Source of the DNA: Methanothrix soehngenii GP6
GTDB taxonomy: Archaea > Halobacteriota > Methanosarcinia > Methanotrichales > Methanotrichaceae
Assembly: GCF_000204415.1 (NCBI RefSeq)
Contig: NC_015416.1
Span: 2,418,001-2,482,000, forward strand
DNA: 64,000 nucleotides
Direction of reading: 5' to 3'
Made by a program: the position numbers and the translations under genes. This document shows positions 48,917-52,797 of this stretch, piece by piece (positions within the stretch are counted from its first letter, which is position 1; the number at the start of each line of letters is the position of its first letter). The notes beneath the pieces were generated by a model. That model searched no databases, was not told where the DNA came from, and saw only the letters and a program-made list of their open reading frames with translations.

Positions 48917-48936
48917 CTCCGGTCTTCAGGCCGGAG
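48917..48936. repeat. 20-bp palindromic hairpin, copy 1
   Basis: CTCCGGTCTTCAGGCCGGAG folds into a 6-bp stem with an 8-base loop. It is identical to 49100-49119, with similar flanks (AGGGAA before, AGGAATTG after). It resembles the right-end hairpins of IS200/IS605/IS1341-type elements. No TnpA or TnpB gene is present. Confidence 0.8.
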
Positions 48937-49099
48937 AGGAATTGCGCACTTCACCTCCACTAATTCGCAAATTATTTATTCTCATAGCTGTATCTCCTCC
49001 TTGGAGAAACTGTTTCCAAGGCACTCTTAATTTACTGCATTACGATGCAGTGGGTATCAGTCAGTATGCCCCGAAGCCTCGATATAACCAGGAGGCAAG

Positions 49100-49119
49100 C
49101 TCCGGTCTTCAGGCCGGAG
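49100..49119. repeat. 20-bp palindromic hairpin, copy 2
   Basis: Exact copy of the hairpin at 48917-48936, followed by AAGCTGACATATCTCACC. The right flank is typical of the TnpB-element right end in archaea. Confidence 0.8.
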
Positions 49120-49267
49120 AAGCTGACATATCTCACCTGAAATCATTGAGCGAAATTCTGACCTCCATTGGTTTGCATGGATAAGTAAAAAGCGGTCTTG
49201 ATCTGATTGGTCAAGAGCTCCACCGGGAGCTCTCTGGAGCCTTGCTGCGTGGACAGTTTTGCGGCTC

Positions 49268-49394
49268 TTCGCTGAATTAAGTGGGTGAGGTCCGGCAGAC
49301 AATATGGCCTCTGTGCCTCTGTGGTTGGGTCAGAGCACTGCGGTTCACCACCGAGGCACAAAAGACATAGAGTTTTTTCGATTCAAATTCACCC
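49268..49394. repeat. Dispersed palindromic repeat, copy B
   Basis: A 127-bp element matching copy A (27939-28071). Its core inverted repeat is TGTGCCTCTGTGGT (49312-49325) and ACCACCGAGGCACA (49347-49360), 13 of 14 positions complementary. The right end runs over the stop codon of the secreted protein gene at 49389, so the element supplied or altered the last codons. Confidence 0.85.
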
Positions 49395-50174
49395 CTGCAT
49401 GCCCCACATGTAGCCCCGGCCGCCCTGCCTCTCCAGCTCAATGTTGTATGTGCCGCTGTGCCCGGAATCGTCGTCGATGACCACACGGCCACGGGCAATT
49501 TCTGAATCATCTGCCGAAATGGCCGCAGATATATGCCCTGCGATCTCGGCTTGATCTATCGAACCGGAAGTGGCGCCCTGACCTGCCAGGCTCGCACTCA
49601 GAGTGGATTTGTTGTCCGATGATTCTATGGTGACATTCACCAGATGATAGCTATCGTTGCTGATCCCAAAGCTCCCCCTTAAAATAGTATTCCTACTACC
49701 AGATCCCAGCCGGGATCTTATATCCTCAAGGCTGAGGTTTGATGAGAGAAGACTCCTGGCAACATCCGGGTCTAAAGTCGATATGGTCTCCACGTTCAGC
49801 CTGACGGGATATGATTCGGCATCATTGCTCGCCGTTCCCCGCCAATTCTGGACATCGACATTTCCTCTGCCAACGCCGTTGGATGTGCTTTGTGCACCTT
49901 TGCCGCCGGAGGAATTCAATGAGAGGCTGTTCGTTTCGCCCATGTGGGACCTTGATCTCTCGCCCATCTGGGATGCTGAAGGATTATCTTCTTGAGACCC
50001 AGAGGCGCTGGCGGTCTGGGATGGAGAATTGCCTTCGATTTGAGGGCCAGCAGTCTCGCCCATTTGCCGCGCTCCTGCATCCAAATTCTGAGCTGCTGAG
50101 CATGGACCGCATATCACCAGCAACAATAATGCCAGAGCGAAAAAAGCCAAAGCCTGGCGCATTATGCATCTCAT
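49389..50174 (-). CDS. Secreted low-complexity protein, unknown function
   Basis: 261 residues from ATG 50174 (the frame is open to 50246, and ATG 50162 is possible). The signal peptide (MRQALAFFALALLLLVICGPCSA) is followed by a Ser/Gln/Gly-rich region with three MGE(T/R) units (QMGETAGPQ, QMGERSRSH, HMGETNSLS). A folded-looking C-terminal domain follows (about 120-250), with SYPVRLNVETISTLDPDVARSLLSSNLSLEDIRSRL and beta strands to the end. No family is recognised. The stop codon lies in dispersed repeat copy B. Confidence 0.6.
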   Translation of the reverse strand: MRCIMRQALAFFALALLLLVICGPCSAAQNLDAGARQMGETAGPQIEGNSPSQTASASGSQEDNPSASQMGERSRSHMGETNSLSLNSSGGKGAQSTSNGVGRGNVDVQNWRGTASNDAESYPVRLNVETISTLDPDVARSLLSSNLSLEDIRSRLGSGSRNTILRGSFGISNDSYHLVNVTIESSDNKSTLSASLAGQGATSGSIDQAEIAGHISAAISADDSEIARGRVVIDDDSGHSGTYNIELERQGGRGYMWGMQG

Positions 50175-50278
50175 CTCAATCACCGCACGTCCTGCCAGGT
50201 AATATATGTTATTGTAGGATGTAAGGGATCTTCGCCCCTTTGACATCCCATTGCATTCAGATATTCATGTGGCCAAAG

Positions 50279-50710
50279 TTAGTTTTGGCAACTGCCGTCG
50301 CGGTTACGATCGCGATCGCCGTCACAGTCGCCATTCGACCTTTCGTTATCCTGGTTTCCATATTGGTTGCCCAGTCCCTCCTGGTTACCATATGGGCAGT
50401 TGGGGTTGTTGCAGTCTTTGCCCTGATTTGCATTTTGAGCGGCCGGGCCACTTTGAGCTCCTTTGCCATTCTGAGCGGCTGGACCGTTATCATCTTCCTG
50501 ACCATACTGATTCTGATTGCCCAGACCATCCTGGCTTCCGTATGGGCAGTTGGAATTCCTGCAGTCCTCGCCGCAATTGCCATACTGAGCCCCAGGCCCA
50601 TCCTGGCCTGCCAGTCCATTCTGCGATGCTTTTCCGTTTTGTGCTGCCAGGGCAGGAGATGCCAGCAGGCATGCCACCGCTAAAACCGACAATACAGCTA
50701 TGTATTTCAT
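50279..50710 (-). CDS. Secreted Gln/Asn/Gly-rich repeat protein with CPYG motifs
   Basis: 143 residues. The signal peptide (1-22) ends ALA. The mature chain is low-complexity AQNG/GNQ sequence with two copies of a roughly 20-residue unit: CGEDCRNSNCPYGSQDGLGNQ (46-66) and GKDCNNPNCPYGNQEGLGNQ (97-116). The cysteines could form disulfides or bind metal. The C-terminal tail is Asp/Arg-rich (GDCDGDRDRNRDGSC). No family is known. It lies between another secreted protein and a membrane-anchored regulator, all on the minus strand. Confidence 0.65.
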   Translation of the reverse strand: MKYIAVLSVLAVACLLASPALAAQNGKASQNGLAGQDGPGAQYGNCGEDCRNSNCPYGSQDGLGNQNQYGQEDDNGPAAQNGKGAQSGPAAQNANQGKDCNNPNCPYGNQEGLGNQYGNQDNERSNGDCDGDRDRNRDGSCQN

Positions 50711-50827
50711 ATTTTACTTACCTCCAGATGGGATGGCCACTATTGCCATCCTCAAACCACTCCTTGCACTGAACGATAGAAAAAATCCAGGCCGAACCAG
50801 GATTGAGATTTTATTTCCCAAAAATGC

Positions 50828-51877
50828 TTAAAATTGTTCTTTATTGTTCTTAAATCTCTCTGACAATTCTATTATGTTCGTTCTGCCTTTTTCTCTTTTG
50901 GTTATCAATTTGCGCTTCTCCATTGAGGTTAAAATGCCTGATAGAGATGATTTAGAGATATCCGTCTCATAGCTGATATCCCTCTGGACCATCCTCCCTC
51001 CGCGCTGCAGCAGAAGCTTTAAGACGGATTGCTCTTTGTCCGTCAAAGTAGCCATCACCGCGGATATTTCGCTGGTATCCGCCATACCTGCTCTGAATTC
51101 CTCGCTGCCATCATTCTTTTGAGCAGATTGAACTTGATCCTCATGCTCAGCGTTTCTATGGCCGGATGATTGGGTTTTTATCATATGCTCATGAGCGGCA
51201 GGGCATTTTTCAGGCCCCAAAGGTTTTGACCTGCGCCTGGAGGAGCGGATCAGAAAAACAGCGCCAATAAGCAGCAAAATAGTAATTAATATCGCAACAT
51301 ATTGCAAAATTTCCATTTTTAAATTCGATATTCCAGCATTTGATCCAGCAGAGGTGACTGTATCTGCCAACGCCGCGGTTGCCTCGTCAATCTGAAGAGC
51401 ATATCCAATTTCAACCGCAGGATCCAAAATATCATGTCCATAAACCTCAGCGACAACTGATCGGTTGGCGGCATAGACCAGATAATCAAGACCATCAGAA
51501 GAGTCAACTCCGCTGAGCTTTGCGTTCTCTGGCAGATAGAAGATAATCCTGTACTCTTCATAGATGCCTGGAGACTCAAATCTAAGGCTCCAACTATCAG
51601 CGGATTTGGAGGTTAGGGCATTGGTGATAGCATACAGCTGCCTGCTCTCATCATCAATAGAATACTCTGAGGAGTTCAAAAAGGGCAAGGATTCAGGATC
51701 CTCAACATATCCAGTGATCAAGCACCTTCCACCTTCGTCGACATACACGCTCAGTATAAGCTGATTTAGAAGGGGGTCATCTTCGGCGGACTGGATGGAT
51801 GTTGCAGCGCTGAATATGATGGAATTGAAGAAGACAAACACCAAGATCAAACCGATCAAAAGATCCGGCCTGCGCAT
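50828..51877 (-). CDS. Membrane-anchored winged-helix regulator (DUF7343-like)
   Basis: 349 residues. A signal or anchor segment (about 8-27) is followed by an extracytoplasmic beta-rich domain (about 30-190) and a transmembrane helix (about 192-213, ILQYVAILITILLLIGAVFLI). A charged linker and a cytoplasmic winged helix follow (about 270-345: LTDKEQSVLKLLLQRGGRMVQRDISYETDISKSSLSGILTSMEKRKLITKREKGRTNIIEL). This is a one-protein sensor that could relay an outside signal to DNA. The adjacent secreted-protein genes are the obvious candidates for control; this is inferred from position. Confidence 0.8.
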   Translation of the reverse strand: MRRPDLLIGLILVFVFFNSIIFSAATSIQSAEDDPLLNQLILSVYVDEGGRCLITGYVEDPESLPFLNSSEYSIDDESRQLYAITNALTSKSADSWSLRFESPGIYEEYRIIFYLPENAKLSGVDSSDGLDYLVYAANRSVVAEVYGHDILDPAVEIGYALQIDEATAALADTVTSAGSNAGISNLKMEILQYVAILITILLLIGAVFLIRSSRRRSKPLGPEKCPAAHEHMIKTQSSGHRNAEHEDQVQSAQKNDGSEEFRAGMADTSEISAVMATLTDKEQSVLKLLLQRGGRMVQRDISYETDISKSSLSGILTSMEKRKLITKREKGRTNIIELSERFKNNKEQF

Positions 51878-52054: not shown

Positions 52055-52378
52055 ATGCAGTTTCTCATGCTTATGGGACGCAAAGCCAAGCCCGAGTCTC
52101 CGGAGGAGATGGCCATGGTGCATCACGCTCTGGAGAATCCCATCCGCCGGAGGATGCTCATCCTCATGAATGAGGGCCATCTGACAGTGGACGCGATCGC
52201 GAAAGAGGTGGGCGATCGAATGCTCGACTACCAGCTGCACCGGCTGGAGCTGGCAGGATTGCTGGAGGTGCATGATGGGCAAATAACCCTCACCGATGCC
52301 GGGCTGGCCTATGGCAGCCTGGTGAAATTGGAAAAAGAGAAGGGCGGAGCGGAAAAAATTAGACCGGAAGACCTGTAG
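52055..52378 (+). CDS. Small winged-helix regulator
   Basis: 107 residues from ATG 52055 (ATG 52067 or 52073 are possible). The HTH region is MVHHALENPIRRRMLILMNEGHLTVDAIAKEVGDRMLDYQLHRLELAGLLEVHDGQITLTDAGLAYG, an ArsR/archaeal HTH fold without cysteines. It is divergent from the membrane-anchored regulator. Its targets are unknown. A GC-rich hairpin follows about 80 bases downstream. Confidence 0.75.
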   Translation: MQFLMLMGRKAKPESPEEMAMVHHALENPIRRRMLILMNEGHLTVDAIAKEVGDRMLDYQLHRLELAGLLEVHDGQITLTDAGLAYGSLVKLEKEKGGAEKIRPEDL

Positions 52379-52629: not shown

Positions 52630-52797
52630 TCAGCCGTGGGACCTCCGGACCTTTCTCTCATTGCGATCCAAATAGTCCTTTATGGCCTCTACTACCACCT
52701 CGGAGCGCTGCACATAAAGGGCTCCTCTGCTTTTTATAACAAAATTCGATAGCCGGTCGTTCAGATCAGAATCCAGCTCTACCTCGATCTTAGGCAT
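52630..52797 (-). CDS. Small ribbon-helix-helix protein
   Basis: 55 residues from ATG 52797. The N-terminal beta strand MPKIEVELDSDLNDRLSNFV and helices RGALYVQRSEVVVEAIKDYLDRNERK match the CopG/MetJ-type RHH fold; antitoxin and regulator families share it. No toxin gene is adjacent. It starts 36 bases upstream (leftwards on the map) of the end of the tRNA endonuclease gene on the same strand, so it may be the last gene of that run. Confidence 0.7.
   Translation of the reverse strand: MPKIEVELDSDLNDRLSNFVIKSRGALYVQRSEVVVEAIKDYLDRNERKVRRSHG

What the first reader, a model, noticed from the sequence alone, without database searches (positions are those of the whole stretch)
49389..51877. Secreted repeat proteins beside a membrane-spanning winged-helix sensor
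Three minus-strand genes: a membrane protein with outside domain and cytoplasmic winged helix, a CPYG/GNQ repeat secreted protein, and an MGE-repeat secreted protein. The sensor could monitor or control the extracellular products. None of the secreted proteins matches a known family. This is the best candidate here for an undescribed small system.
Basis: inference. Interest (0 to 1): 0.6.

Follow-up and report, generated by a model that had tools for sequence, protein, structure and literature searches.

The report
Membrane-bound archaeal regulator of exported proteins
In methane-making Methanothrix archaea, a family of regulators that span the cell membrane sits beside, and very probably switches on or off, a set of genes for exported proteins and a drug-pump-like exporter through a shared DNA switch that nobody seems to have described.

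Summary
The three minus-strand genes are real and correctly placed. The upstream protein has a signal peptide, a beta-sandwich ectodomain, one membrane helix and a DUF7343 winged helix. The two downstream proteins are exported and match no known family.

In relatives, the regulator and the C-terminal domain of the "MGE" protein lie side by side in 40 of 45 assessable Methanotrichaceae genomes and in all 8 Methanoperedenaceae loci read. The CPYG protein is not conserved: its slot holds other fast-changing exported proteins. Related loci often adjoin a MacB-type ABC exporter operon.

The main new result is a promoter element, GTTC-N15-TATCGTTC, straddling a TATA-like stretch. In the window it lies at 50771-50797 (-), between the regulator and CPYG genes. 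It follows 31 of 55 regulator genes in two archaeal families. A model of it finds seven sites in the whole genome: beside the trio and its paralogues, before an unlinked MacB operon, and before another exported Met/Cys-rich protein. It is found in 49 of 50 Methanotrichaceae and in only one of 188 other genomes of the class.

That the regulator binds this element is inferred. The signal, direction of control and products' functions are unknown.

The parts
50828..51877 (-). Transmembrane transcription regulator ('sensor'), 349 aa: signal peptide/anchor, ectodomain, one TM helix, C-terminal winged helix
   Evidence: ORF; Pfam DUF7343; four paralogues in the genome; homologues in 50/50 Methanotrichaceae and 11 Methanoperedenaceae genomes
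51395..51766 (-). Ectodomain of the regulator (residues about 38-161), beta-sandwich; in many relatives also present as a separate exported single-domain protein encoded after the MGE gene
   Evidence: AlphaFold2 model with pLDDT of 94-98 across most of the domain; ectodomain-only genes
50864..51046 (-). Winged helix (residues 278-338), recognition helix KSSLSGILTSMEKR, wing GRTNIIELS
   Evidence: Pfam DUF7343 residues 278-338; recognition helix and wing nearly invariant in 55 homologues of two families
50771..50797 (-). Promoter element GTTC-N15-TATCGTTC (GTTCGGCCTGGATTTTTTCTATCGTTC), two GTTC boxes either side of a T-rich/TATA-like stretch; proposed operator
   Evidence: conserved in unselected alignment of the same intergenic gap in relatives; weight-matrix hit trained without the window, and the only hit in 64 kb; genome model E 1.6e-4; exact pattern
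50279..50710 (-). Exported low-complexity CPYG/GNQ protein, 143 aa, 7 Cys after the signal peptide; species-specific occupant of a conserved slot
49389..50174 (-). Exported MGE-domain protein, 261 aa (alternative start 50246)
49389..49860 (-). Conserved MGE domain: two helices and eight predicted strands, with the invariant N of SNLSLEDIR and G of LRGS
   Evidence: alignment of 37 homologues; AlphaFold2 pLDDT 83, pTM 0.72

Best explanation
The three genes are one node of a regulon run from the cell membrane. A single-pass transmembrane transcription regulator senses something outside the membrane with its beta-sandwich ectodomain. Its cytoplasmic winged helix binds, without leaving the membrane, a paired element (GTTC-N15-TATCGTTC) that straddles the TATA region of its target promoters, and so changes access or recruitment of TBP/TFB. 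Its targets are fast-evolving exported low-complexity proteins (CPYG/GNQ here; N-M-T repeats or Met/Cys-rich repeats elsewhere), the exported MGE-domain proteins, and a MacB-type ABC exporter operon, which is next door in several relatives and unlinked in this genome but carries the same element. The likeliest purpose is an envelope or extracellular-stress response that remodels the surface and exports a substrate. Shown here: gene arrangement, conservation, the element, its genomic targets and its matching distribution. Inferred: that the regulator binds the element, the purpose, and co-transcription of the CPYG and MGE genes. Not determined: activation or repression (about even), and the signal.
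For: Regulator and MGE domain adjacent in 40/45 assessable family genomes and 8/8 Methanoperedenaceae loci; ORFs overlap by 4 bases in some genomes. Both families occur only in the same two archaeal families of the class. Element found in an unselected alignment of the gap after the regulator; exact form 19-61 nt after the regulator's stop in 31 of 55 cases, including 7 of 8 Methanoperedenaceae, never upstream of it. Own genome: 7 sites at E <= 0.006, the next at 1.27; sites precede exported-protein genes beside regulators, the unlinked MacB operon, and another exported Met/Cys-rich protein. In 40 further regions fetched around other genomic hits of the model, 39 of 48 sites precede an exported-protein gene or the ABC operon, against 7.7% of random positions in the same stretches. 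Element in 49/50 Methanotrichaceae, in one Methanoperedenaceae genome, and in none of the other 187 genomes of the class. Recognition helix and wing nearly invariant although ectodomains are about 35% identical.
Against: No binding or expression data. Not every regulator gene has the element next to it (24 of 55 lack the exact form; six of these have a close variant by the weight matrix; in genus g8 the regulator-MGE operon has none). The number of exact-core matches in the genome (4) equals that of a backwards control pattern (4), so the case rests on position and on the full model. The weight matrix was seeded from matches to the core, so letter conservation in A3 is partly by construction. 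Any other regulator confined to this family would show the same distribution. The MacB link is absent from the window's own neighbourhood. No conserved metal ligands support a particular signal.
Confidence: 0.7

Rival explanations
1. The element is bound by some other transcription factor of these archaea; the transmembrane protein is merely a neighbour, perhaps itself a target.
For: Binding is inferred only; some regulator genes lack the element nearby and some sites are far from any regulator.
Against: The element lies directly after the regulator in two families and never before it; its distribution follows the regulator; the DNA-reading helix is nearly invariant across paralogues while the rest varies.
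Confidence: 0.15
2. The exported proteins are sheath or cell-surface building material, and the regulator monitors the state of the sheath; the MacB exporter helps to assemble it.
For: Methanothrix cells live in a protein sheath (PMC6242892, PMC11576556); products are exported, repetitive and fast-evolving, many with N-glycosylation sequons.
Against: Homologous loci exist in Methanoperedenaceae, whose sheath was not examined here; no similarity to sheath proteins was tested; exported ferredoxins and TPR proteins in the set fit building material less well. This mostly overlaps with the best explanation; it differs in purpose.
Confidence: 0.2
3. Extracellular metal or redox stress response: Met/Cys-rich exported proteins bind soft metals or oxidants, and the MacB-type pump exports the agent or a ligand.
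For: Several target proteins are 9-12% Met and 4-6% Cys (background 2.6% and 1.2%); exported ferredoxins carry the element; a CxxCH-containing exported protein sits in the Methanoperedenaceae loci.
Against: CPYG here has no Met or His in its mature part; no conserved Cys/His/Met in the MGE domain or ectodomain; products differ widely in composition.
Confidence: 0.25
4. The element is just a lineage-specific core promoter form (TATA plus flanks) for surface-protein genes, with no dedicated regulator.
For: It contains the TATA-like stretch and lies mostly about 50-140 bp before start codons.
Against: Only 1-9 sites per genome at E <= 0.01, far fewer than exported proteins; the two GTTC boxes flank rather than form the TATA.
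Confidence: 0.06

Closest known systems
Transmembrane transcription regulators (TTRs; Demey et al. 2023, PMC10269533)
   Same: One polypeptide with a cytoplasmic DNA-binding domain, a membrane helix and an extracytoplasmic part; the paper reports TTRs as widespread in bacteria and archaea, with about 4 per archaeal genome on average.
   Different: That survey defines the class, not this family; the passages read there do not mention Methanothrix. The ectodomain, the target genes and the paired element were not found described.
ArnR/ArnR1 of Sulfolobus (PMC6396743)
   Same: Archaeal membrane-bound one-component regulators that act on surface-structure genes through two DNA boxes near the promoter.
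   Different: ArnR has an N-terminal HTH, a HAMP-like part and two C-terminal TM helices; its boxes are inverted repeats TCGAC-N5-GTCGA within -43 to -84, upstream of the TATA. Here the wing is C-terminal, there is one TM, and the boxes are direct repeats on both sides of the TATA.
MacAB-type ABC exporters
   Same: The linked operon has a MacB-like ATPase, and a permease with MacB_PCD and FtsX domains.
   Different: ATPase and permease are separate genes; an exported NEW3/CARDB-type protein (called COG1361-like here) takes the place next to them; no MacA or TolC gene was seen; MGE-domain proteins are extra. In the window genome this operon is elsewhere.
EarA (winged-helix archaellum activator, Methanococcus/Pyrococcus)
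   Same: Euryarchaeal winged-helix control of a surface-structure promoter near the BRE/TATA (as summarised in PMC13286277).
   Different: EarA is not part of a membrane protein (own knowledge); no sequence relation was tested.

Membership tests
Transmembrane transcription regulator (TTR) | DNA-binding domain in the same chain as a TM region | tested here: met
   Pfam DUF7343 at residues 278-338; hydrophobic helix about residues 188-211, predicted helical from 187
Transmembrane transcription regulator (TTR) | Extracytoplasmic sensing part | tested here: inconclusive
   A folded ectodomain follows the signal peptide; topology is inferred and no ligand is known
Transmembrane transcription regulator (TTR) | Controls transcription from the membrane | not testable with these tools
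   Only the element and its location were found
ArnR family | N-terminal HTH followed by HAMP, sensor and two C-terminal TM helices | tested here: not met
   Winged helix is C-terminal and there is a single TM; layout of ArnR from PMC6396743
MarR family (Pfam MarR / MarR_2) | Passes the curated score of the family | tested here: not met
   MarR_2 26.0 bits against cut-off 27; MarR 18.4 against 24.6; related winged helix only
DUF7343 (PF24034) | Passes the curated score of the domain model | tested here: met
   61.2 bits against cut-off 27.6
MacB-type exporter (linked operon, not in window) | MacB_PCD + FtsX permease with MacB/LolD-like ATPase | tested here: met
   L194 proteins
MacAB-TolC system | MacA membrane-fusion protein and TolC channel genes with it | tested here: not met
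   Neighbouring ORFs of the operons read show none
Lipocalin / FHbp-like barrel (MGE domain) | Significant fold similarity | tested here: not met
   Best Foldseek E 4.5e-3, TM 0.42
Ost1/ribophorin-like domain (ectodomain) | Significant fold similarity over the domain | tested here: inconclusive
   E 1.5e-4 but TM 0.44 and rmsd 10.8

The most novel reading that the evidence does not exclude
Methanotrichaceae and Methanoperedenaceae share an undescribed envelope-response system: a membrane-tethered winged-helix regulator that acts at a direct-repeat operator bracketing the TATA box, plus exported MGE-domain proteins that serve as outside partners of a MacB-type exporter in place of MacA, plus a rapidly changing set of exported effector proteins.
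Probability: 0.3. Interest if true: 0.75.

Novelty: new variant of a known kind. Interest (0 to 1): 0.62.

Why it matters
Membrane-bound one-component regulators are common in archaea, but few have known targets. Here one family comes with a clear candidate operator, a small defined target set (seven sites in the 3-Mb genome) and conservation across two ecologically important methane-cycle families, so how a transcription factor works from the archaeal membrane becomes directly testable. The targets are exported proteins and an exporter in organisms that live in dense aggregates and, for Methanothrix, exchange electrons with partners; almost nothing is known of how they control their surface.

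Tried and rejected
(1) 'CPYG, MGE and sensor are a conserved trio': rejected as stated; CPYG has sequence relatives in few genomes, only the slot is conserved. (2) 'MGE repeat' as the feature: rejected; the repeat is not conserved, the C-terminal domain is. (3) Direct metal or heme binding by the MGE domain or ectodomain: no conserved Cys/His/Met; lipocalin/nitrophorin fold matches are weak. (4) RNA element in the trio region: no Rfam match. (5) Element upstream of the regulator (simple autoregulation): none found in 55 cases, although in the TPR-regulator pairs of L009 the element lies before the TPR gene. (6) Naming by literature: no held paper mentions DUF7343/DUF7345, and no relevant paper came up for Methanosaeta regulons or the archaeal MacB/COG1361 pair; the M. 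thermoacetophila transcriptome paper gave nothing usable. (8) Counting exact-core matches alone is not informative: the backwards control gives as many.

Full report
Observation. The genome is 3,008,626 + 18,019 bases, which fits Methanothrix soehngenii GP6 (from memory, not tested). The upstream protein carries a DUF7343 winged helix; its ectodomain and the two exported proteins match no Pfam or NCBIfam family.

Paralogues. The genome has four more regulators of this family. One lies in a locus of the same shape (L010): regulator, exported protein, and an MGE-domain protein that is the only other MGE homologue in the genome. Three alternate with exported TPR proteins (L009).

Relatives. The MGE domain is in 45 of 50 family genomes by single sequence and 46 by profile; the regulator is in all 50. 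I tallied neighbourhood by hand from these coordinates and from the gene orders: 40 genomes have both on one strand side by side; five have a contig end in the way (G021, G022, G024, G032, G033); five do not have them together (G002, G004, G047, G048, G049). The usual order is regulator, small exported protein, MGE protein, then in many genomes an exported copy of the ectodomain alone. In some genus-g8 genomes the regulator and MGE ORFs overlap by 4 bases. Across 238 genomes of the class the two families occur only in Methanotrichaceae and one other family, which a named search identifies as Methanoperedenaceae.

Link to a MacB-type exporter. In 7 of 8 Methanoperedenaceae loci the pair sits with an ABC ATPase, a NEW3/CARDB-type exported protein and a MacB_PCD/FtsX permease. 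In Methanotrichaceae the same three genes adjoin the loci of the M. thermoacetophila group and several others (L099, L104, L107, L127, L169, L170). The window's MGE domain groups with that of G036 and with the exporter-linked ones of the M. thermoacetophila group (support 97/90). The matching exporter permease of this genome (72% identical) lies at C1:1736371, far from the trio.

The element. An alignment of the gap after the regulator in 19 relatives, made without any motif in mind, shows a block GTTCGTTCGGC-N7-CTTTTCTATCGTTC in an otherwise unconserved stretch. The window has GTTCGGCCTGGATTTTTTCTATCGTTC at 50771-50797 (-), 61 nt before the CPYG start codon. A weight matrix not trained on the window gives this as its only hit in 64 kb, no hit in 488 kb of shuffled sequence, and strong hits before the unlinked exporter operon (L194), before exported genes elsewhere, and weaker ones before two MGE genes of Methanoperedenaceae. 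The exact form GTTC-N15-TATCGTTC is found 19-61 nt after the stop of 31 of 55 regulator genes, including 7 of 8 in Methanoperedenaceae; six more have a close variant.

Regulon. A sequence-only covariance model finds seven sites in the genome at E <= 0.006 and then nothing before E 1.27: the window, L010, three before TPR genes in L009, the exporter operon, and C1:271187, which was in no training set and lies 70 bp before an exported Met/Cys-rich protein. In the class, 49 of 50 Methanotrichaceae have sites, one Methanoperedenaceae genome has one, and none of the other 187 has any at E <= 0.01; the model is less sensitive for the Methanoperedenaceae form. I fetched 40 further regions: 39 of 48 sites precede a signal-peptide ORF or the exporter operon, against 7.7% of random positions in the same regions. 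Targets include N-M-T repeat proteins, SMMDGK-type Met/Cys-rich proteins, exported ferredoxins and the exporter.

Regulator and element. The recognition helix (P)KSSLTGI and the wing GRTN-IELS are nearly invariant in 55 proteins of two families, whereas ectodomains are around 27-44% identical to the window's. That fits many sensors reading one DNA site. It is inference; no binding was measured.

Products. The MGE domain is predicted as an eight-stranded structure with two helices (pLDDT 83); fold matches are weak. The ectodomain is a confident beta-sandwich with only a loose match to Ost1. Neither has conserved Cys, His or Met, so no ligand is suggested. The slot proteins share little but export signals, low complexity and often high Met, Cys, Gly, Asn or Gln.

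Known context. Transmembrane transcription regulators are an accepted class (PMC10269533), and ArnR is a studied archaeal case with two promoter boxes (PMC6396743), but with another layout and operator. No held paper mentions DUF7343. I therefore call this a new variant of a known kind.

Limits. Core letters of the matrix are conserved partly by construction; exact-core counts alone do not exceed a backwards control in the genome; the signal-peptide test is a crude script; E-values of the model are rough; CPYG-MGE co-transcription, sign of control, signal and function are not shown.

Noticed in passing
window 48917-48937 and 49100-49120 (-): The same 21-nt hairpin-like sequence (CTCCGGCCTGAAGACCGGAG core) occurs twice, 183 bp apart, in the non-coding stretch between the MGE gene and an FmdE-like gene; none expected by chance. 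It may be the remains of a small transposable element.
   Followed up: partly
window 50732-50750 (-): A palindrome GATGGC-N7-GCCATC lies between the element and the CPYG start; G036 has a similar stem at the same place (GGATG...CATCC).
   Followed up: no
L249:5682-5945, also L236, L243, L250: Small 2[4Fe-4S] ferredoxins with an N-terminal export signal, preceded by the same promoter element; ferredoxins outside the cytoplasm are unusual.
   Followed up: partly
L009 (G000:C1:2942000-2958000): Three exported TPR-repeat proteins each followed by a paralogous regulator, each TPR gene with the element upstream.
   Followed up: partly
L163/L161/L164 (Methanoperedenaceae loci): A small exported protein with one CxxCH motif (in L161 also a PGF-CTERM sorting signal) sits between the MGE gene and the exporter genes.
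   Followed up: no
L194:5428-5691 and relatives: A short conserved ORF (REYLKHKPCLRGQILDRGELKRVAQACGLSP...) of no known family precedes the exporter operon in many genomes.
   Followed up: no
window 52055-52378 (+) and 52630-52797 (-): A small winged-helix-like ORF (ArsR/HTH_20 matches below cut-off) and a short ORF that looks like a ribbon-helix-helix protein lie upstream of the regulator gene.
   Followed up: no
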